Part shown: in pieces, positions 36,565 through 44,550 of the stretch
Numbering within the stretch: the first letter of the stretch is position 1
How the letters are laid out: every line of letters begins with the position of its first letter
From: Streptomyces marispadix
GTDB lineage: Bacteria; Actinomycetota; Actinomycetes; Streptomycetales; Streptomycetaceae
Length of the DNA stretch: 64,000 nt
Direction of reading: 5' to 3'
Assembly (NCBI RefSeq): GCF_022524345.1
Contig: NZ_JAKWJU010000002.1
Location: 5,756,001 to 5,820,000 of the forward strand
Position numbers and translations under genes: made by a program
Notes under the pieces: generated by a model
The model's database searches: none
Told to the model about the DNA's origin: nothing
Seen by the model: the letters and a program-made list of their open reading frames with translations, nothing else

Positions 36565-37563
36565 TCAGGCCACGTCGGCCACGGCCACCGGCCGCCCCTC
36601 GCGGCGTGAGCGCTCGCACGCCTCGGCGATGCGCAGCGCCGCCAGCGCCTCGTAACCGTCGCAGGGGTTGGGCGCCTCGCCCTCGACCGCCCGTACGAAC
36701 GCGGCGAGTTCGGCCTCGTACGCCGGGGCGAACCGCTCGAGGAAGCCGGGCCACGGAGTGCCCTGCGATGCGGCCGCCGCGGGCTCCACCGACGTCAGGG
36801 GCGTACGGGCGTCGAGCCCGACCGCGATCTGGTCCTTCTCGCCCGCGAGTTCCATGCGTACGTCGTATCCCGCGCCGTTGACGCGGGTGGCCGTGGCCGT
36901 GCACAGCACGCCGTCGTCCAGGGTGAGCAGGACAGCGGCGGTGTCGACGTCGCCGTGTTCGCGGAACATCTCCGGACCGGCGTCCGACCCGGCGGCGTAG
37001 ACGGAGACCACTTCGCGTCCGGTCACCCAGCGCAGCGCGTCGAAGTCGTGGACGAGGCAGTCGCGGTAGAGGCCGCCGGAGAGCGGGATGTAGGCGGCTG
37101 GCGGCGGCGCCGGGTCGGAGGTGGCGGCCCGTACGGTGTGCAGCCGCCCCAGCGAACCGGACCTCACGGCCGCGCGTGCCGCCGCATAGCCCGCGTCGAA
37201 GCGCCGCATGAAGCCGATCTGGAGCAGGATGCCCGCCTCTTCGACCGTACGGAGGGCTTCGGCGGTGCCGTGGAGATCGAGCGCGATCGGCTTCTCGCAG
37301 AACACGGGCACCGAGTGGCCGGCCGCCGCCTGGATCAGCTCCGCGTGGGAGGAGGTCGCCGAGGCGATCACCACCGCGTCGAGGTCGCGGGAGAGGAGTT
37401 CGCCGGGGGAGGGGGCATGCGTGGCGCCGAGGTCCGCGGCCACCTCGGCGGCGCGTGCGGCGTCCACGTCGGTGACGAGCAGTTCGCTCACCTCGGGGCG
37501 AGCGGTGAGAGTACGTGCGTGGAAGGTGCCGATCCGGCCGGTGCCGATGAGTCCGATGCGCAT
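36565..37563 (-). CDS. Gfo/Idh/MocA-family oxidoreductase, inositol 2-dehydrogenase-like
   Basis: A 332-residue NAD(P)-dependent dehydrogenase. ATG 37563 is chosen since the protein begins there with MRIGLIGTGRIGTFHARTL, the Rossmann GxGxxG. The upstream frame extension is non-homologous and overlaps the promoter. The catalytic CEKPIALD (Lys) and GGLYRDCLVHDFDALRW (His/Asp) motifs are intact. The pattern is closest to IolG-type inositol dehydrogenases. The substrate is a polyol or sugar imported by the ABC system of the same regulon. Its -10 box ends six bases before the ATG and no ribosome binding site is present, so the mRNA is probably leaderless. Confidence 0.88.
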   Translation of the reverse strand: MRIGLIGTGRIGTFHARTLTARPEVSELLVTDVDAARAAEVAADLGATHAPSPGELLSRDLDAVVIASATSSHAELIQAAAGHSVPVFCEKPIALDLHGTAEALRTVEEAGILLQIGFMRRFDAGYAAARAAVRSGSLGRLHTVRAATSDPAPPPAAYIPLSGGLYRDCLVHDFDALRWVTGREVVSVYAAGSDAGPEMFREHGDVDTAAVLLTLDDGVLCTATATRVNGAGYDVRMELAGEKDQIAVGLDARTPLTSVEPAAAASQGTPWPGFLERFAPAYEAELAAFVRAVEGEAPNPCDGYEALAALRIAEACERSRREGRPVAVADVA

Positions 37564-37569
37564 GGGGGT

Positions 37570-37615
37570 ACGTTCGCCCGTCCGCTCAAGAGCTGTCAAT
37601 ACTTTGTCAGGACAA
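37570..37615 (-). promoter_or_regulatory. Promoter and GntR operator of the Gfo/Idh gene
   Basis: Minus strand: TTGTCCTGACAAAG (37602-37615), then -35 TTGACA (37594-37599), 18 bases, -10 GAACGT (37570-37575), and ATG six bases later. The run GACAAAGTATTGAC is identical to the block before the binding-protein gene at 38691-38704. Confidence 0.65.
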
Positions 37616-37713
37616 TTGAACGAGCCGTATGGGTGCGGGCGTTCCCGTCCGCTTCCCCGGTCCGGCTCACGGCCGGACCCGGAGGCCGAGGCGAGAGGAA
37701 CCCGGCGGTCCGC

Positions 37714-37768
37714 TTTGTCCGGACAACCGAACTTACGCCTTCCAGTGGGCCGCACGGGCCACTACGCT
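37714..37768 (+). promoter_or_regulatory. Promoter and operator of the gntR-type gene
   Basis: The perfect 12-base palindrome TTGTCCGGACAA lies at 37715-37726. Further down, TACGCT (37763-37768) is a likely -10 box ending six bases before GTG 37775. A -35 is weak (TTCCAG, 37740-37745). Negative autoregulation is likely. Confidence 0.55.
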
Positions 37769-37774
37769 CCACCC

Positions 37775-38533
37775 GTGGCCAAGAATGATCCCGTGGACCT
37801 CGAGTTCAGCGTGGACCGAAGCAGTCCGGTTCCGCTGTACTTCCAGCTCGCCCAGCAACTCGAGACCGCCATCGAACGCGGCAGACTCTCCCCCGGAAGC
37901 CTGCTGGGCAACGAGATCGAACTCGCGGGGCGCCTGGGCCTGTCCCGCCCCACGGTCCGCCAGGCCATCCAATCCCTCGTCGACAAGGGCCTGTTGGTGC
38001 GCCGCCGCGGCATCGGCACCCAGGTCGTGCACAGCCAGGTGCGGCGCCCGCTCGAACTGAGCAGCCTCTACGACGACCTGGAGGCGGCCGGTCAGCGCCC
38101 CGCCACCCGGCTGCTGCGGTACGAGCGGCAGGAGGCGACCGCGGAGGTCGCTGCCGCGCTGTCGGTACCCCAGGGCGCGGAGGTGCGCCTGGTGGAGCGG
38201 CTGAGGCTGACCCACGGCGAACCCATGGCCTTCCTGCGCAATCACCTTCCCGGTGATCTGCTCCAGGGGGAGAGCGGCGAGGAGCTGGAATCCACGGGCC
38301 TGTACCGGCTGATGCGCGGCCTCGGCGTCACGCTGCACAGTGCCCGGCAGTCCGTCGGGGCCCGGGCCGCCGCAGAGGACGAGGCCAAGCTGCTGGGGGA
38401 GGAGGCCGGGGCGCCGCTTCTGACGATGGAGCGCACGACCTTCGACGACACCGGCCGTCCCGTGGAGTACGCGTCGCATCTGTACCGGGCGTCGCGCTAC
38501 GCGTTCGAGTTCCAGCTCCTCGTACGTTCCTGA
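37775..38533 (+). CDS. GntR/HutC-family transcriptional regulator
   Basis: A 252-residue protein. GTG 37775 fits the family start (VAKNDPVDLEFSVDRSSPVP); longer upstream frames are not homologous. The N-terminal winged helix reads PLYFQLAQQLETAIERGRLS, GSLLGNEIELAGRLGLSRPT, VRQAIQSLVDKGLLVRRRGIG. The C-terminal UTRA effector domain includes EVRLVERLRLTHGEPMAFLR and LLTMERTTFDDTGRPVEYAS. There is no ribosome binding site and a -10 lies six bases upstream, suggesting a leaderless transcript. TTGTCCGGACAA-like operators before this gene, the Gfo/Idh gene and the ABC operon make it their probable shared regulator. Confidence 0.9.
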   Translation: MAKNDPVDLEFSVDRSSPVPLYFQLAQQLETAIERGRLSPGSLLGNEIELAGRLGLSRPTVRQAIQSLVDKGLLVRRRGIGTQVVHSQVRRPLELSSLYDDLEAAGQRPATRLLRYERQEATAEVAAALSVPQGAEVRLVERLRLTHGEPMAFLRNHLPGDLLQGESGEELESTGLYRLMRGLGVTLHSARQSVGARAAAEDEAKLLGEEAGAPLLTMERTTFDDTGRPVEYASHLYRASRYAFEFQLLVRS

Positions 38534-38654
38534 CGCCCCTGACACCTGACGCTGTCGCCGGGCGCTCCTGGTACGCGCCCGGTGGTCCCGTTACGCCAAG
38601 TCCCCTTCCCCGTACGGCAGACGAGGGCGACGCAACGGTGCACGGCAGGGCCCG

Positions 38655-38729
38655 AAGTTTGTTCGGACAAACTTGCATGGAGAATGTTCGGACAAAGTAT
38701 TGACGCCTTGCTCCGGGCCCGGCTAGAAC
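38655..38729 (+). promoter_or_regulatory. Double operator and leaderless promoter of the sugar ABC operon
   Basis: A 20-base near-perfect palindrome, AAGTTTGT-TCGG-ACAAACTT (38655-38674), is followed by a second copy, TGTTCGGACAAAG (38685-38697). Next come -35 TTGACG (38700-38705), an 18-base spacer and -10 TAGAAC (38724-38729). ATG 38737 is seven bases after the -10, where RNA should begin. Confidence 0.7.
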
Positions 38730-38736
38730 TCCGCTC

Positions 38737-39747
38737 ATGGTCCTTCGGCGTAGAGCACGTAGAGCGACAACTGTGGCGGCAGCCCTGACGAGTGCGGCGC
38801 TTCTCGCCGCCGGATGCAGCAGCTCCGGCGGCAAGGGAGGCGAGGAGCAGAGCAACGGCGCGGGCGGCGGCAAGGGCGTGAACACCCCGCGCATGACGAT
38901 CGCGATGGTCTCCCACTCGGGGGACGGCGACACCTTCTGGGACATCGTGCAGAGCGGAGCGAAGGACGCGGCCCGCAAGGACAACGTCCAGTTCGACTAC
39001 TCGCACGACGAGGAGGCGGGCCGCCAGGCGCAGCTCGTGAAGTCCGCCGTCGACAAGAAGGTCGACGGGCTGATAGTCACGCTCGCCAAACCGGACGCGA
39101 TGAAGGGCGTCGTGAAGAAGGCCGTCGACGCCGGCATCCCCGTGATCACCATCAACTCGGGCGGCCAGTACTCGAAGGACTTCGGCGCGATCTCCCACAT
39201 CGGCCAGGACGAGGCGATCGCGGGCGAGGCCGTCGGCGACGAGCTGAACAAGCGCGACCGCAAGAAGGCCCTGTGCGTCATCCACGAGCAGGGCAACGTC
39301 TCGCTGGAGGAGCGCTGCGACGGCGCGAAGAAGACCTTCGACGGCGAGATGAGCACGCTCAACGTCGACGGCACGAACATGCCGGACGTGCAGTCCTCCG
39401 TGGAGGCCAAGCTTCAGTCGGACGACGACATCGACACCGTCCTGACCCTCGGCGCCCCCTTCGCGGCCACCTCGGCCAAGGCGAAGGAGAAGGCGGGCAG
39501 CAAGGCCGAGATCGACACTTTCGACCTCAACGCACAGGTCGTGCAGGGCCTGAAGGACAAGAGCTTCGGCTTCGCAGTAGACCAGCAGCCCTACCTCCAG
39601 GGCTACGAGGCCGTCGACGCCCTGTGGCTGCACTCGTACAACGCCAATGAACTGGGCGGCGGCAAGCCCGTGCTGACCGGCCCGCAGGTCGTCACGGACA
39701 AGGACGTACCGAGGCTGGAGAAGTACACCAAGCGCGGGACCCGGTGA
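38737..39747 (+). CDS. Sugar-binding lipoprotein 1 of a ribose/inositol-type ABC importer
   Basis: A 336-residue type 1 periplasmic-binding-fold protein (CUT2/RbsB-like). The signal peptide RRRARRATTVAAALTSAALL ends in the lipobox LLAAGC, followed by a Ser/Gly linker. The binding domain starts MTIAMVSHSGDGDTFWDIVQ, with SAVDKKVDGLIVTLAKPDAM, IPVITINSGGQYSKDFGAI, HIGQDEAIAGEAVGDELNK and FGFAVDQQPYLQGYEAVDAL. ATG 38737 has no ribosome binding site and seems leaderless. A second, closely similar binding-protein gene follows 112 bases later. The substrate may be the polyol oxidised by the Gfo/Idh enzyme. Confidence 0.93.
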   Translation: MVLRRRARRATTVAAALTSAALLAAGCSSSGGKGGEEQSNGAGGGKGVNTPRMTIAMVSHSGDGDTFWDIVQSGAKDAARKDNVQFDYSHDEEAGRQAQLVKSAVDKKVDGLIVTLAKPDAMKGVVKKAVDAGIPVITINSGGQYSKDFGAISHIGQDEAIAGEAVGDELNKRDRKKALCVIHEQGNVSLEERCDGAKKTFDGEMSTLNVDGTNMPDVQSSVEAKLQSDDDIDTVLTLGAPFAATSAKAKEKAGSKAEIDTFDLNAQVVQGLKDKSFGFAVDQQPYLQGYEAVDALWLHSYNANELGGGKPVLTGPQVVTDKDVPRLEKYTKRGTR

Positions 39748-39859
39748 GCGGCCACCGGAAACCGGTCGCCGATACTGGCGCGGACGTCCGCGCCGGTGCC
39801 GGCGGCCACCGCGGGTGCCCGGACGCAGACAAGCCCCCGTACCGAGAGGTCAGCAGCAG

Positions 39860-40918
39860 GTGTCAAGGCTGGACAGTTTCCGGAACAGCAGCGCGTGGCC
39901 GCCCTCGCGCAGGCGTACCGGGACACCCGTCGCGAGGGCCGCGACCGCGGTCCTGCTACTCGTCTCCGTCGCGCTCACGGGATGCAGCGCGACCGGCGGG
40001 AAGCGCGCGGAGGAGGCGCGCGACGCGGCGGTGTCGGGCGGCGCGGGCGTCGACACGCCCCGCTGGAAGATCGCCATGGTGAGCCACTCCGGCGAGGGCG
40101 ACACCTTCTGGGACATCGTGCAGAGCGGCGCGAAGCAGGCCGCGGCGAAGGACAACATCGACTTCCACTACTCGCACGACAAGGAAGCAGGACGCCAGGC
40201 GCAGCTCGTCAAGGCCGCCGTCGACAACAAGGTCGACGGGCTGATCGTCTCCCTCGCCAAGCCGGAGGCGATGAAGGGCGCCCTGCGGAAGGCCGAGAAG
40301 GCCGGCATCCCCGTCGTCACGATCAACTCCGGCCAGGACCAGTCGAAGGAGTACGGCGCGCTCGCCCACATCGGGCAGGACGAGAAGATCGCGGGCGAGG
40401 CCGTGGGACGTGAACTGAACGAGCGCGGCCGTAAGAAGGCCGTCTGCCTGCTGCACGAGCAGGGCAACGTCGGCCATGAGGAACGCTGCCGCGGCGTGCG
40501 CGAGACCTTCGACGGGGAGGTGCGCGATCTGCACGCCGACGGTACGAACATGCCCGCCGTCGAGTCCTCCCTGGAGGCCGAACTCCAGTCGGACCGCGAC
40601 ATCGACACGGTGGTGACGCTGGGCGCCCCCTTCGCACCGACCGCCGTCAAGGCGGCGGAGGGCGCGGGCAGCAAGGCCGAGACCGTCACCTTCGACCTCA
40701 ACGACCAGGCGGCCAGGGGGCTGAAGGACGGCTCGATCGGCTTCGCCGTGGACCAGCAGCCCTACCTCCAGGGCTACGAGGCGGTCGACCTGCTGTGGGC
40801 CGAGCGCTACAACGCCAACATGCTGGGCGGCGGCAAGCCCGTGCTGACCGGCCCGCAGATCCTCACGAAGAAGGACGCATCCACCTTGCAGAAGTACACG
40901 AAGCGGGGAACGCGATGA
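39860..40918 (+). CDS. Sugar-binding lipoprotein 2 (tandem paralogue)
   Basis: A 352-residue paralogue of the preceding protein, similar over the whole binding domain: KIAMVSHSGEGDTFWDIVQ, AAVDNKVDGLIVSLAKPEAM, HIGQDEKIAGEAVGRELNE, FAVDQQPYLQGYEAVDLLW and the same [14 protein letters not shown] ending. GTG 39860 follows GAGAGG. A signal peptide ends in the lipobox SVALTGC. The N-terminal extension and linker differ from copy 1, and substitutions cluster in loops. One permease and one ATPase gene follow, so the two receptors probably serve the same channel with different sugars or affinities. Confidence 0.92.
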   Translation: MSRLDSFRNSSAWPPSRRRTGTPVARAATAVLLLVSVALTGCSATGGKRAEEARDAAVSGGAGVDTPRWKIAMVSHSGEGDTFWDIVQSGAKQAAAKDNIDFHYSHDKEAGRQAQLVKAAVDNKVDGLIVSLAKPEAMKGALRKAEKAGIPVVTINSGQDQSKEYGALAHIGQDEKIAGEAVGRELNERGRKKAVCLLHEQGNVGHEERCRGVRETFDGEVRDLHADGTNMPAVESSLEAELQSDRDIDTVVTLGAPFAPTAVKAAEGAGSKAETVTFDLNDQAARGLKDGSIGFAVDQQPYLQGYEAVDLLWAERYNANMLGGGKPVLTGPQILTKKDASTLQKYTKRGTR

Positions 40919-42051
40919 CGGCTGCATCCACACCCACACCACCGGGCGCCACGGAGGGCACGACCCCCGAGGCCCCCGAAGAGACGGCCACCGGCGGGGG
41001 CGTCAGGACCGCGGGGACCGCCGGGACGGCAGGCACCGATGAGCGGCTCGTGCACCGGTCGCTGCTCCAGCGCATGCTGGGACGTCCCGAACTCGGCGCC
41101 GTCGTGGGCGCGATCGCGGTCTTCGTCGTCTTCTCGGTCGTCGCCGACAGCTTCCTGCGCGCCTCCAGCCTCTCCACGGTCCTGTACGCCTCGTCGACTC
41201 TCGGGATCATGGCGGTGCCGGTGGCACTGCTGATGATCGGCGGGGAGTTCGACCTGTCGACCGGTGTGATGGTCACCAGCTCCTCGCTGGTCTCCTCGAT
41301 GTTCAGCTATCAGATGACGGCGAACGTCTGGGTGGGAGTGGGCGTATCGCTGCTGGTCACGCTGGGCATCGGCCTCTTCAACGGCTACATGCTCGTACGT
41401 ACAGGACTGCCGAGCTTCATCATCACGCTCGGCACGTTCCTGATGCTCACCGGCCTCAACCTGGGGCTGACGAAGCTCATCAGCGGCACCGTCTCCACCA
41501 AGACCATCTCCGACATGGAGGGGTTCGCCTCAGCGAAGGCGCTCTTCGCCTCCGAGCTGACGATCGGCCCCGCCGACATCCAGGTCACCGTCGTGTGGTG
41601 GCTGGTGCTGGTGGCGCTGGCGACGTGGCTGCTGCTGCGCACGAAGGCGGGGAACTGGATCTTCGCCGTCGGCGGCGGGCAGCACACGGCGCGAGCGGTC
41701 GGCGTCCCCGTGGCCCGCACCAAGATCGGCCTGTATCTCGGGGTGGCGCTGGGCGCGTGGATCTCCGGGCAGCATCTGCTCTTCAACTACGACGTCGTGC
41801 AGTCCGGCGAGGGCGTCGGAAACGAGCTGATCTACATCGCCGCGGCCGTCATCGGCGGCTGCCTGCTCACCGGCGGCTACGGCTCCGCGGTCGGCGCCGC
41901 GGTGGGTGCGTTCATCTTCGGCATGACGAGCAAGGGCATCGTGTACGCGCAGTGGGAGCCCGACTGGTTCAAGTTCTTCCTCGGGGCGATGCTGCTGGTC
42001 GCCGTGCTGCTGAACGCGTACATACGCAAGCGGGCGGAGGCGAACCGATGA
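40915..42051 (+). CDS. CUT2-type sugar ABC permease
   Basis: A 378-residue membrane protein whose ATG overlaps the preceding stop (ATGA). A 45-residue Thr/Gly/Ala-rich tail precedes about nine or ten helices. [22 protein letters not shown] and [19 protein letters not shown] are the typical RbsC-type motifs, followed by [21 protein letters not shown] and [24 protein letters not shown]2 permeases work as homodimers, so one gene suffices. It ends in an overlap with the ATPase gene. Confidence 0.94.
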
Positions 42052-42989
42052 CGGCGGACAACGACTCGGAGAAGGGCGCGGACGTGGCGGACGGCGCATC
42101 CCGGGAGCACGGCGCGAGCCCGGCGGCACCGCAGACGGCGGCACCGGAGGCGGCAACTTCCGCACCGGCGGCCCCCGAACCGGAGGACGCCGTCCGTACG
42201 CCGCTGGTCGAGCTGACCGACGTCAGCAAGTTCTACGGCAACATCCGGGCCCTGGAGGACGTCTCACTCCAGGTCTCCGCAGGCGAGATCACCTGCGTTC
42301 TCGGCGACAACGGCGCCGGCAAGTCGACCCTCATCAAGATCGTCGCGGGGCTCCACCAGCACGACTCGGGCACCTTCCGCATCAACGGCCAGGAGGCGCG
42401 GCTCTCCTCGCCGCGCGAGGCGCTGGACCGCGGCATCGCCACCGTCTACCAGGACCTCGCCGTCGTCCCGCTGATGCCGGTGTGGCGGAACTTCTTCCTC
42501 GGCTCCGAACCCACCAAGGGGCGCGGCCCGTTCGCCCGCCTCGACGTCGACCTCATGCGCCGCACCACCCACAGCGAGCTGCTGCGCATGGGCATCGACC
42601 TGCGCGACGTCGACCAGCCCATCGGCACCCTCTCCGGCGGCGAGCGCCAGTGCGTCGCCATCGCCCGCGCCGTCTACTTCGGCGCGAAGGTGCTGGTGCT
42701 GGACGAGCCGACGGCGGCGCTCGGAGTGAAGCAGTCCGGGGTGGTCCTCAAGTACGTGGCGGCGGCGCGCGACGCCGGACTGGGCGTGGTGCTGATCACG
42801 CACAACCCGCACCACGCCTATCTCGTGGGGGACCGTTTCGTACTGCTCAAGCGCGGCGCGATGGCGGGCAGCCACCGCAAGGACGGGCTGGAGCTGGAGG
42901 AGCTGACCCGGCAGATGTCCGGCGGCAGCGAGCTGGAGCAGCTCAGCCACGAGCTGGAGCGGGCGCCCGTGCCGCAGCATCTGAGCTGA
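42048..42989 (+). CDS. Sugar ABC importer ATPase (single domain, CUT2 type)
   Basis: A 313-residue ATPase with an about 45-residue Ala/Pro/Glu-rich N-terminal tail. Walker A is [15 protein letters not shown]-loop [12 protein letters not shown], signature [15 protein letters not shown], Walker [13 protein letters not shown] and switch His [10 protein letters not shown]. Unlike RbsA or MglA it has only one nucleotide-binding domain, like FrcA-type systems, so it should act as a homodimer. Its start overlaps the permease stop. It closes the transporter operon. Confidence 0.95.
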
Positions 42990-43389
42990 GCCGGCGTCCG
43001 CGGGCGGGGCCGCTGAGCGGGTGCCGTGGCGCCCGGCCGCCGTGGGCCGGCTCACGTCCCGCTCACGCTCGCCCCGTACGCCGTCCCGCCCGCTGTCCCC
43101 CCCCGTCGCGTGAGTCCCCGCGCGTACGTCATCGCAGGTCACATGCCCCGGCTGCCCGGCGCCCCGGCCGCGCACCGCCGGTGCCCGGCATCGTCGCTGG
43201 TGAGAGCCCTGTGGCGTCGTCGCCTCGCGCGGTAAGGCAGAATCGGCCAGTGGGCAGGGCTTGGTACGGGTCGCTGTACGGACCGCCGTACTGGCCGCCG
43301 CACGGACCCGGCCCGCGACCACCGACCGTCAGCCGTACGACCGACCCGTGGCCCGCAGCCAGCAGCCGCGCACAGAGGAAGGCCGCGCA
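42990..43389. other. Gap between ABC operon and ROK kinase
   Basis: 400 bases without a supported gene. The hairpin CCGGCC-N6-GGCCGG at 43033-43050 is a possible terminator for the ABC operon. The second half must hold the promoter of the ROK kinase gene, but no clear -35/-10 pair was recognised. Confidence 0.35.
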
Positions 43390-44550
43390 GTGAGCATGTA
43401 CCGAGAGCGCGCGGACCGCGACCGTCTCTACCGCCGCTCCGCGCCGAGTGCCAGCGTCCTGCGCACCGTCAGCACCCGGGAGCGGCGTTCGCCCCTGTCG
43501 GCGCCGAGGGTCCCCACCGTCGGCATCGACATCGGCGGTACGAAGGTGATGGCCGGGGTCGTCGACGCCGACGGCCACATCCTGGAGCAGGTGCGGGCCG
43601 AGACACCGGAGAAGTCCAAGAGCCCCAAGGTCGTCGAGGACACCATCGCCGAGCTGGTGCTGGACCTCTCCGACCGGCACGACGTGCACGCCGTGGGCAT
43701 CGGCGCCGCCGGCTGGGTCGACGCCGACCGCTCCCGAGTGCTCTTCGCCCCGCATCTGGCCTGGCGCGACGAGCCGCTCAAGGACGCCCTCACCGCACGT
43801 CTCGCCGTCCCCGTCATGGTCGACAACGACGCCAACACGGCCGCATGGGGCGAGTGGCGCTTCGGAGCCGGACGCGGCGAGGACCATCTGGTGATGATCA
43901 CTCTCGGCACCGGCATCGGCGGTGCCATCCTGGAGAACGGCCAGGTCAAACGCGGAAAGTACGGCGTGGCGGGCGAGTTCGGGCACATGCAGGTCGTGCC
44001 CGGGGGCCACCGCTGCCCCTGCGGCAACCGCGGCTGCTGGGAGCAGTACAGCTCGGGCAACGCCCTCGTGCGCGAGGCCCGCGAACTGGCCCTCGCCGAG
44101 TCGCCCGTCGCCTACGGCATCACCGAACGCGTCGGCGGCCACATCTCGGAGATCACCGGCCCGCTCATCACCGAACTCGCCCGCGGCGGCGACGCCATGT
44201 GCACGGAGCTGCTCCAGGACATCGGGCACTGGCTGGGCGTCGGCATAGCCAATCTCGCCGCCGCCCTCGACCCGGGCGGCTTCGTGATCGGAGGCGGCGT
44301 CAGCGCCGCCGACGAACTGCTCATCGACCCCGCCCGCGAGGCGTTCAAACGCCATCTGACGGGCCGGGGATACCGTCCGGAGGCCACCATCGCCAAGGCA
44401 CAACTCGGCCCCGAGGCGGGCATGGTCGGAGCCGCCGACCTCGCCCGGCTCGTCGCCCGCCGCTTCCGCCGCGCCAACCGCCGCCGCCTGGAGCGGTACG
44501 AGCGCTACGAGCGCGCCGCGGACAACCTGCGCCGGGCGGTGGGCCAGTGA
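43390..44550 (+). CDS. ROK-family glucokinase-like sugar kinase
   Basis: A 386-residue protein. GTG 43390 is chosen because AGAGGAAGG lies just upstream. A basic 43-residue N-terminal extension (MYRERADRDRLYRRSAPSA) precedes the kinase domain. ATP-binding VGIDIGGTKVMAGVVD, catalytic MVDNDANTAAWGEW (Asp), TLGTGIGGAILENG, and the zinc site GEFGHMQVVPGGHRCPCGN with RGCWEQ are all present. It should phosphorylate glucose or a related hexose with ATP. A basic RRFRRANRRRLERYERYE tail ends the protein. The stop overlaps the start of the next small membrane-protein gene. Confidence 0.88.
   Translation: MSMYRERADRDRLYRRSAPSASVLRTVSTRERRSPLSAPRVPTVGIDIGGTKVMAGVVDADGHILEQVRAETPEKSKSPKVVEDTIAELVLDLSDRHDVHAVGIGAAGWVDADRSRVLFAPHLAWRDEPLKDALTARLAVPVMVDNDANTAAWGEWRFGAGRGEDHLVMITLGTGIGGAILENGQVKRGKYGVAGEFGHMQVVPGGHRCPCGNRGCWEQYSSGNALVREARELALAESPVAYGITERVGGHISEITGPLITELARGGDAMCTELLQDIGHWLGVGIANLAAALDPGGFVIGGGVSAADELLIDPAREAFKRHLTGRGYRPEATIAKAQLGPEAGMVGAADLARLVARRFRRANRRRLERYERYERAADNLRRAVGQ

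What the first reader, a model, noticed from the sequence alone, without database searches (positions are those of the whole stretch)
37563..38740. GntR regulon with four matching operators and three apparently leaderless transcripts
TTGTCCGGACAA-type palindromes precede the Gfo/Idh gene (37602-37615), the regulator (37715-37726) and the ABC operon (38655-38674 and 38685-38697). The Gfo/Idh and ABC promoters share the identical run GACAAAGTATTGAC, joining operator to -35. In all three cases the -10 ends 6-7 bases before the start codon and no ribosome binding site exists. A whole regulon using leaderless mRNAs would couple sugar control to a distinct translation mode.
Basis: partly seen in the sequence, partly recalled or inferred. 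Interest (0 to 1): 0.72.

Follow-up and report, generated by a model that had tools for sequence, protein, structure and literature searches.

The report
Inositol-type regulon, only partly leaderless
In this Streptomyces one regulator probably controls uptake and breakdown of a sugar alcohol, most likely myo-inositol; three of its promoters do look as if transcription starts right at the start codon, but its breakdown operons have ordinary leaders, so the idea of a wholly leaderless regulon fails.

Summary
Four TGTNNNNACA operators lie where stated, a 14-base operator/-35 run is shared by the Gfo/Idh and ABC promoters, and the three -10 boxes end 6-7 bases before a start codon without a convincing ribosome-binding site. 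The regulator is a HutC-type GntR protein like the S. coelicolor inositol regulators SCO6256/SCO6974 (recalled identity). The composite TGTNNNNACA-N5-TTGAC occurs five times in the 6.7 Mb genome (reversed control 0): at Gfo/Idh, at the ABC operon, at two divergent promoters 3.9 Mb away driving iolC-Cgl0159-iolB and an iolE-like gene, and once at an apparently unrelated gene. The two iol promoters have leaders and ribosome-binding sites, so the regulon is not uniformly leaderless. Across 81 loci gntR keeps leaderless geometry in 81 and Gfo in 52 of 53 usable ones. Of 41 loci with the composite before the ABC operon only 4, one clade, are leaderless; 33 start further downstream and 4 are unresolved. 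Outside Streptomyces operator-like sites persist in 12 of 15 homologues, leaderless geometry in 5. Sugar control and translation mode are therefore not coupled. About 20-22% of Streptomyces genes are leaderless anyway. Verdict: new member of a known kind; its best use is a natural series of leaderless and leadered promoters under one regulator.

The parts
36565..37563 (-). Gfo/Idh/MocA dehydrogenase, inositol 2-dehydrogenase-like (iolG-like), apparently leaderless ATG at 37563
   Evidence: TIGR04380 316 bits, below its cutoff of 355; Pfam GFO_IDH_MocA; matches solved inositol dehydrogenases; -35-to-ATG distance 29-31 nt in 52 of 53 loci
37570..37599 (-). Gfo promoter: TTGACA 37594-37599, spacer 18, weak -10 GAACGT 37570-37575, 6 nt before the ATG
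   Evidence: sequence; A at -11 and T at -7 in 42 of 53 loci
37604..37615 (.). operator of the Gfo promoter; part of the composite TGTNNNNACA-N5-TTGAC at 37595-37614 (- strand)
   Evidence: operator centre 45-47 bp before the Gfo start in 48 of 49 loci with an operator
37715..37726 (.). operator of the gntR promoter, perfect palindrome TTGTCCGGACAA
   Evidence: centre 54-57 bp before the gntR start in 67 of 75 loci, 24 bp in 5
37740..37768 (+). gntR promoter: TTCCAG 37740-37745, spacer 17, TACGCT 37763-37768, 6 nt before the GTG
   Evidence: sequence; TANNNT 6 or 7 nt before an in-frame GTG in 81 of 81 loci
37775..38533 (+). GntR-family (HutC type, UTRA domain) regulator, apparently leaderless GTG start
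   Evidence: Pfam GntR and UTRA; best solved relative 2ra5, 386 bits; next GntR of the genome only 37% identical
38659..38670 (.). distal operator of the ABC promoter, TTGTTCGGACAA
   Evidence: a second operator before the binding-protein gene was flagged only in the window and L005-L007
38684..38695 (.). proximal operator of the ABC promoter, ATGTTCGGACAA; part of the composite at 38685-38704
38700..38729 (+). ABC promoter: TTGACG 38700-38705, spacer 18, TAGAAC 38724-38729, 7 nt before the ATG
   Evidence: sequence; same promoter with a leader in most relatives that have it
38737..39747 (+). sugar-binding lipoprotein 1 (Peripla_BP_4), apparently leaderless ATG
   Evidence: Pfam; best solved relative 4ru1, 290 bits; no SD
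39815..40918 (+). sugar-binding lipoprotein 2 (open frame; true start uncertain)
   Evidence: open frame, Peripla_BP_4 in its 39872-40915 part
40915..42051 (+). ABC permease (BPD_transp_2)
   Evidence: Pfam PF02653; start read
42048..42989 (+). ABC ATPase of the sugar type, single ATPase domain
   Evidence: NCBIfam sugar ABC ATPases, best 184 bits, none over its cutoff
43261..44550 (+). ROK-family sugar kinase downstream (start uncertain); membership of the regulon not tested
   Evidence: TIGR00744 299 bits, cutoff 260

Best explanation
This is the uptake-and-regulator half of a probable myo-inositol regulon of Streptomyces under one HutC-type GntR repressor. Without inducer the dimer binds (A/T)TGT-N4-ACA(A/T), which lies five bases from the -35 hexamer at gfo, the ABC operon, iolC and the iolE-like gene, and so keeps RNA polymerase off; an inositol-derived inducer releases it. 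In this genome gfo, gntR and the ABC operon are transcribed from the first base of their start codons (leaderless), while the iol operons have leaders and ribosome-binding sites. Leaderless translation is thus a property of single promoters, not of the regulon. Shown here: operators, the composite and its rarity, its place at the iol operons, conservation and spacing. Inferred: GntR binding, repression rather than activation, the inducer, and the transcript starts.
For: Composite TGTNNNNACA-N5-TTGAC: 5 in the genome against 0 for the reversed pattern, 4 of the 5 at gfo, ABC, iolC and the iolE-like gene; 167 against 26 in 61 Streptomyces genomes (summed and by hand); before iolC in 29 of 30 loci. 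iolC (363 bits, cutoff 300), iolB (277, cutoff 205), iolD (895, cutoff 715) and methylmalonate-semialdehyde dehydrogenase (784, cutoff 448) models are met in that cluster. No other close GntR relative in the genome. gntR leaderless geometry 81 of 81 with no SD word at that start, control ORFs 44 of 372; Gfo spacing 29-31 nt in 52 of 53. iolC and iolE-like leadered; in relatives 28 of 29 iolC with the composite are leadered with an SD word. Titles of Yu et al. 2015 and 2016 on SCO6974 and SCO6256.
Against: No binding, expression or 5'-end data. The Gfo dehydrogenase and the iolE-like gene score below their equivalog cutoffs (316 of 355; 134 of 290), so the substrate may be another inositol or an inosamine (the binding proteins also match a rhizopine-transport model, below cutoff). 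The window's Gfo -10 is weak and its anti-SD pairing intermediate (-5.7). 36 of 81 loci have no composite before the binding-protein gene. Operators lie upstream of the -35, a place that could also serve activation.
Confidence: 0.8

Rival explanations
1. Regulon-wide leaderless control: all transcripts of the regulon are leaderless, so that sugar control is tied to a distinct translation mode.
For: Three of three promoters in the window have the geometry; gntR and gfo keep it across the genus; one relative (L107) shows leaderless geometry at iolC too.
Against: Own iolC and iolE-like promoters carry the same composite but have leaders and ribosome-binding sites. 28 of 29 iolC promoters with the composite are leadered with an SD word. 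The ABC operon is leaderless in 4 of 41. Outside Streptomyces 12 of 15 homologues have an operator-like site but 5 of 15 the leaderless geometry.
Confidence: 0.03
2. The leaderless look is misleading: upstream promoters give leadered transcripts, or translation starts further downstream.
For: No 5'-end data; the window Gfo -10 and the GntR -35 are weak; most relatives with the ABC promoter start translation 40-88 nt after the -35; some Gfo and gntR regions show strong calculated anti-SD pairing (down to -12.0 and -8.6).
Against: Distances from promoter to start codon are held within 1-2 nt across 81 gntR and 52 Gfo loci. For the window's ABC gene the only later in-frame candidate seen near the start, GTG 38773, has weak SD pairing (-2.1) and would remove the basic part of the signal peptide.
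Confidence: 0.12
3. The regulator is an activator of the operons rather than a repressor: operator centres at about -46 and -55 are upstream of the -35.
For: Fixed operator-to-start distances of 45-47 bp at gfo (48 of 49) and 54-57 bp at gntR (67 of 75).
Against: In five griseus-group loci the gntR operator lies at 24 bp, inside the core promoter, fitting a repressor; the title of Yu et al. 2015 calls SCO6974 a repressor; HutC-type regulators are mostly repressors (recalled).
Confidence: 0.1

Closest known systems
SCO6256/SCO6974 GntR regulators of myo-inositol catabolism, S. coelicolor (Yu et al. 2015, 2016; titles only, in the reference list of PMC6608401)
   Same: HutC-type GntR regulator beside sugar ABC genes and an iolG-like gene; best solved relative 2ra5, which I recall as SCO6256 (not checked); the operator fits a motif (A/T)TGT(A/C)N(G/T)(G/T)ACA(A/T) that I recall from the 2015 abstract, except that the ABC operators read TGTT
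   Different: one regulator of this type in this genome instead of the two I recall for S. coelicolor; ABC operon leaderless and with a second operator in this clade
Leaderless mRNAs of Streptomyces (passages of PMC4895711 21.0%, PMC6742748 about 20%, PMC8780764 22.2%)
   Same: -10 ends 6-7 nt before the start codon, no convincing ribosome-binding site; transcription regulators are frequent among them, and GntR-family whiH and SCO1678 are leaderless (PMC4681348)
   Different: gntR here uses GTG, whereas 76.4% of S. coelicolor leaderless starts are AUG; transcript ends not mapped here

Membership tests
SCO6256/SCO6974-type inositol GntR regulon | HutC-type regulator: GntR wHTH plus UTRA domain | tested here: met
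   PF00392 59 bits and PF07702 135 bits
SCO6256/SCO6974-type inositol GntR regulon | Operator of the regulator before inositol-catabolic operons | tested here: met
   same composite before iolC-Cgl0159-iolB and the iolE-like gene; before iolC in 29 of 30 loci
SCO6256/SCO6974-type inositol GntR regulon | Neighbouring dehydrogenase is an inositol 2-dehydrogenase by NCBI's curated cutoff | tested here: not met
   TIGR04380 316 bits, cutoff 355; so inositol remains the likely, not the proven, substrate
SCO6256/SCO6974-type inositol GntR regulon | Regulator binds the operators and represses; inducer releases it | not testable with these tools
   needs EMSA, footprinting and a deletion strain
Leaderless mRNA | -10 element 6-7 nt before the start codon | tested here: met
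   three promoters; gntR 81 of 81, Gfo 52 of 53 by -35 distance
Leaderless mRNA | No ribosome-binding site | tested here: met
   -2.3 and -1.2 for gntR and ABC, intermediate -5.7 for Gfo, against -8.6 for iolC and iolE-like
Leaderless mRNA | Mapped transcript 5' end at the start codon | not testable with these tools
   no 5'-end data for this strain; supplements of the published TSS maps could not be read
   iolC and iolE-like leadered with RBS; ABC leaderless in 4 of 41 loci with its promoter

The most novel reading that the evidence does not exclude
The regulon is split on purpose: regulator, first dehydrogenase and, in this clade, uptake are leaderless, while the catabolic operons are leadered, so that conditions favouring leaderless translation let the cell sense and take up the polyol before it invests in breakdown; the ABC operon would have become leaderless and gained a second operator in this clade to join the first group.
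Probability: 0.08. Interest if true: 0.5.

Novelty: new member of a known kind. Interest (0 to 1): 0.27.

Why it matters
It turns a suggestive three-promoter picture into a testable regulon map: operons 3.9 Mb apart are tied together by a composite found five times in the genome. It also offers a natural comparison of leaderless and leadered promoters under one regulator, including a single-clade difference at the ABC operon and one relative (L107) with leaderless geometry at iolC, useful for asking what a leader costs or buys in Streptomyces. The stronger claim, that a whole regulon uses a separate translation mode, is not borne out.

Tried and rejected
Other operator-like sites. TTTGTCCGGACAAA with up to 3 mismatches gives 30 sites in the genome against 45 for the reversed control, so most are chance. 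Besides the window I fetched the surroundings of nine such sites and one iolE-family hit and scanned proteins beside some of them. The iolC site has 3 mismatches and was recognised only because iol genes lie beside it; the composite was then defined from gfo, ABC, iolC and iolE, so its four hits at those places are partly circular; its rarity (5 in the genome, control 0), the 61-genome count and the iolC loci of relatives are the independent part. Sites in L087 lie beside a GH18-like gene and a CUT1 ABC operon and resemble DasR sites (recalled). The fifth composite, C2:4578596, precedes a gene that reads TetR-like to my eye and is left as probable chance.

Rejected: chance geometry for gntR (81 of 81 against 44 of 372 control ORFs; the control includes genes inside operons, and tests up to 150 nt of candidate starts); a GTG 38773 start for the ABC gene.

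Limits. For Gfo 28 of 81 loci gave no hit and were dropped. 6 of 81 loci have no strict operator before gntR. For the ABC operon, 41 loci have the composite (37 strict, 4 relaxed); the 33 leadered starts were picked for best SD pairing, which favours finding one, and L046 (40 nt after the -35) and L022 (52 nt) are doubtful. The tree puts the four leaderless loci in one clade, but the sister six lack the composite, so the direction of change (leader lost) is inference. One search had 30 loci from 40 matching genomes of 41, the own included. One search had 29 loci of 57 matching genomes among 197, 14 Streptomyces (all 14 leaderless geometry) and 15 others; in L153 and L159 the true start is unclear. 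My SD word list lacked GAAAGG (own iolC); one search added it and one search uses pairing energy with a recalled anti-SD word. The permease and ATPase energies were taken one base off. My permease and ATPase queries, and the ATPase, were out of frame and not used; one search has the right frame. The script failed after its control part; one search replaced the rest.
Full report
What is there. The stretch holds a Gfo/Idh dehydrogenase (minus strand), a divergent HutC-type GntR regulator and an ABC operon (two binding proteins, permease, ATPase), followed by a ROK kinase (TIGR00744, 299 bits, cutoff 260). Three of the six genome-wide matches to TTGTCCGGACAA with up to one mismatch lie here (reversed control 3).

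What it probably handles. The dehydrogenase scores 316 bits against the inositol 2-dehydrogenase model, below its cutoff of 355, and matches solved inositol dehydrogenases. The binding protein's best solved relative is 4ru1 (290 bits; I recall a myo-inositol complex, not checked); it also matches a rhizopine-transport model below cutoff. The regulator matches 2ra5 along residues 8-251 (386 bits; recalled as SCO6256, not checked). The titles of Yu et al. 2015 and 2016, seen only in the reference list of PMC6608401, name SCO6974 as a repressor of myo-inositol catabolism and SCO6256 as conditionally regulating the same genes. The papers are not held.

The decisive extension. Read against the -35 boxes the operators form one composite, TGTNNNNACA-N5-TTGAC. 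It occurs five times in the genome, the reversed control never. Two are gfo and ABC. Two lie back to back at C2:1,920,747-766 and 1,920,816-835, 3.9 Mb away, between iolC-Cgl0159-iolB on one side and an iolE-like gene (134 bits, cutoff 290) on the other; iolD and a methylmalonate-semialdehyde dehydrogenase gene follow iolB on the same strand. The fifth precedes an apparently unrelated gene. In 61 Streptomyces genomes the composite has 167 matches in 55 genomes against 26 for the control (matches summed, control by hand). It precedes iolC in 29 of 30 loci. The next GntR relative in the genome is only 37% identical, so this regulator is the natural candidate for all four promoters.

Leaderlessness. 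gntR has TANNNT 6 nt (58 loci) or 7 nt (23) before an in-frame GTG in 81 of 81 loci, with an SD word at that start in none. The same test on other ORFs of these loci succeeds in 44 of 372. For gfo the -35-to-ATG distance is 29-31 nt in 52 of 53 usable loci and A at -11 with T at -7 is found in 42 of 53. Against a clean picture: an SD-like word occurs in 4 of 53 gfo regions, and some gfo and gntR regions have strong calculated anti-SD pairing (extremes -12.0 and -8.6; medians -3.0 and -3.2). The ABC operon differs. Of 81 loci 41 have the composite before the binding-protein gene; 4 of these are leaderless (window, L005, L006, L007), 33 have a start 40-88 nt after the -35 (median 69; median pairing -8.5, starts chosen for best pairing) and 4 are unresolved; 36 loci have no composite there and 4 no such gene. 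The four leaderless loci form one clade (support 100/96); its sister six lack the composite, so that the leader was lost in this clade is likely but not proven.

Why the coupling idea fails. The own iolC and iolE-like promoters carry the composite but are followed by leaders and ribosome-binding sites (GAAAGGG and GAGGAG; pairing -8.6 each). Among relatives 28 of 29 iolC promoters with the composite, the own included, are leadered with an SD word; one (L107) has leaderless geometry. Outside Streptomyces 12 of 15 homologues have a TGTNNNNACA site within 160 nt of the chosen start, but 5 of 15 show leaderless geometry. Control site and translation mode thus vary independently. Leaderless genes make up about 20-22% in Streptomyces (passages of PMC4895711, PMC6742748, PMC8780764), and GntR-family whiH and SCO1678 are examples (passages of PMC4681348).

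How it probably works. The operator centre lies 45-47 bp before the gfo start in 48 of 49 loci and 54-57 bp before the gntR start in 67 of 75. A bound dimer would abut the -35 box at gfo, ABC, iolC and iolE and occlude it; at gntR it sits about one turn further away, which predicts weaker autoregulation (inference). Of 53 loci with a usable gfo, 38 have one strict operator between the two genes, 11 have two and 4 none. In the window clade and L030 the two operators keep the canonical distance to their own promoters; in L075 the second is at 72. In five griseus-group loci (L028, L069, L073, L074, L082) the gntR operator lies at 24, about 31 bp or three turns nearer, inside the core promoter, which fits a repressor.

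Verdict. A real and well conserved inositol-type GntR regulon with some leaderless members: ordinary in kind, extended here to its catabolic operons, with the regulon-wide leaderless claim refuted on sequence grounds. A search for papers holding leaderless, regulon, GntR and Streptomyces returned 8; judged by titles none describes this combination, and of these I opened passages of PMC4681348 only. The other paper searches showed none on this locus in the listings I saw.

Noticed in passing
window 38737-39747 and 39815-40918: Two related sugar-binding lipoproteins in tandem in one ABC operon; many of the fetched relatives also show two, others one.
   Followed up: no
L028, L069, L073, L074, L082 (griseus group), before gntR: gntR operator centre 24 bp before the start codon instead of about 55, a shift of about 31 bp or three helical turns, with the leaderless -10 kept.
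   Followed up: partly
L107 (G008), before iolC: iolC with TAGACC 7 nt before an ATG and no SD word, unlike the other 28 iolC loci with the composite: a second, separate leaderless case in this regulon.
   Followed up: partly
gntR promoter of most Streptomyces loci: A CTTCCCGTCA stretch upstream of the gntR -10 recurs in many loci; it covers the place of the -35 and could be a further control site.
   Followed up: no
36 of 81 loci, before the binding-protein gene: No composite there; many show a GATACTTGG element instead, so the ABC operon may be under other control in these species.
   Followed up: no
L087 positions 4642 and 5999 (C2:4907641 and 4908998): Operator-like TTTGTCCGTACAAT and TTGGTCCAGACAAT upstream of a CUT1 sugar ABC operon and a GH18-like gene; resemble DasR sites as I recall them.
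   Followed up: partly
L103 position 3597 (C2:4578596): The fifth composite of the genome precedes a gene that reads TetR-like by eye; probably chance.
   Followed up: partly
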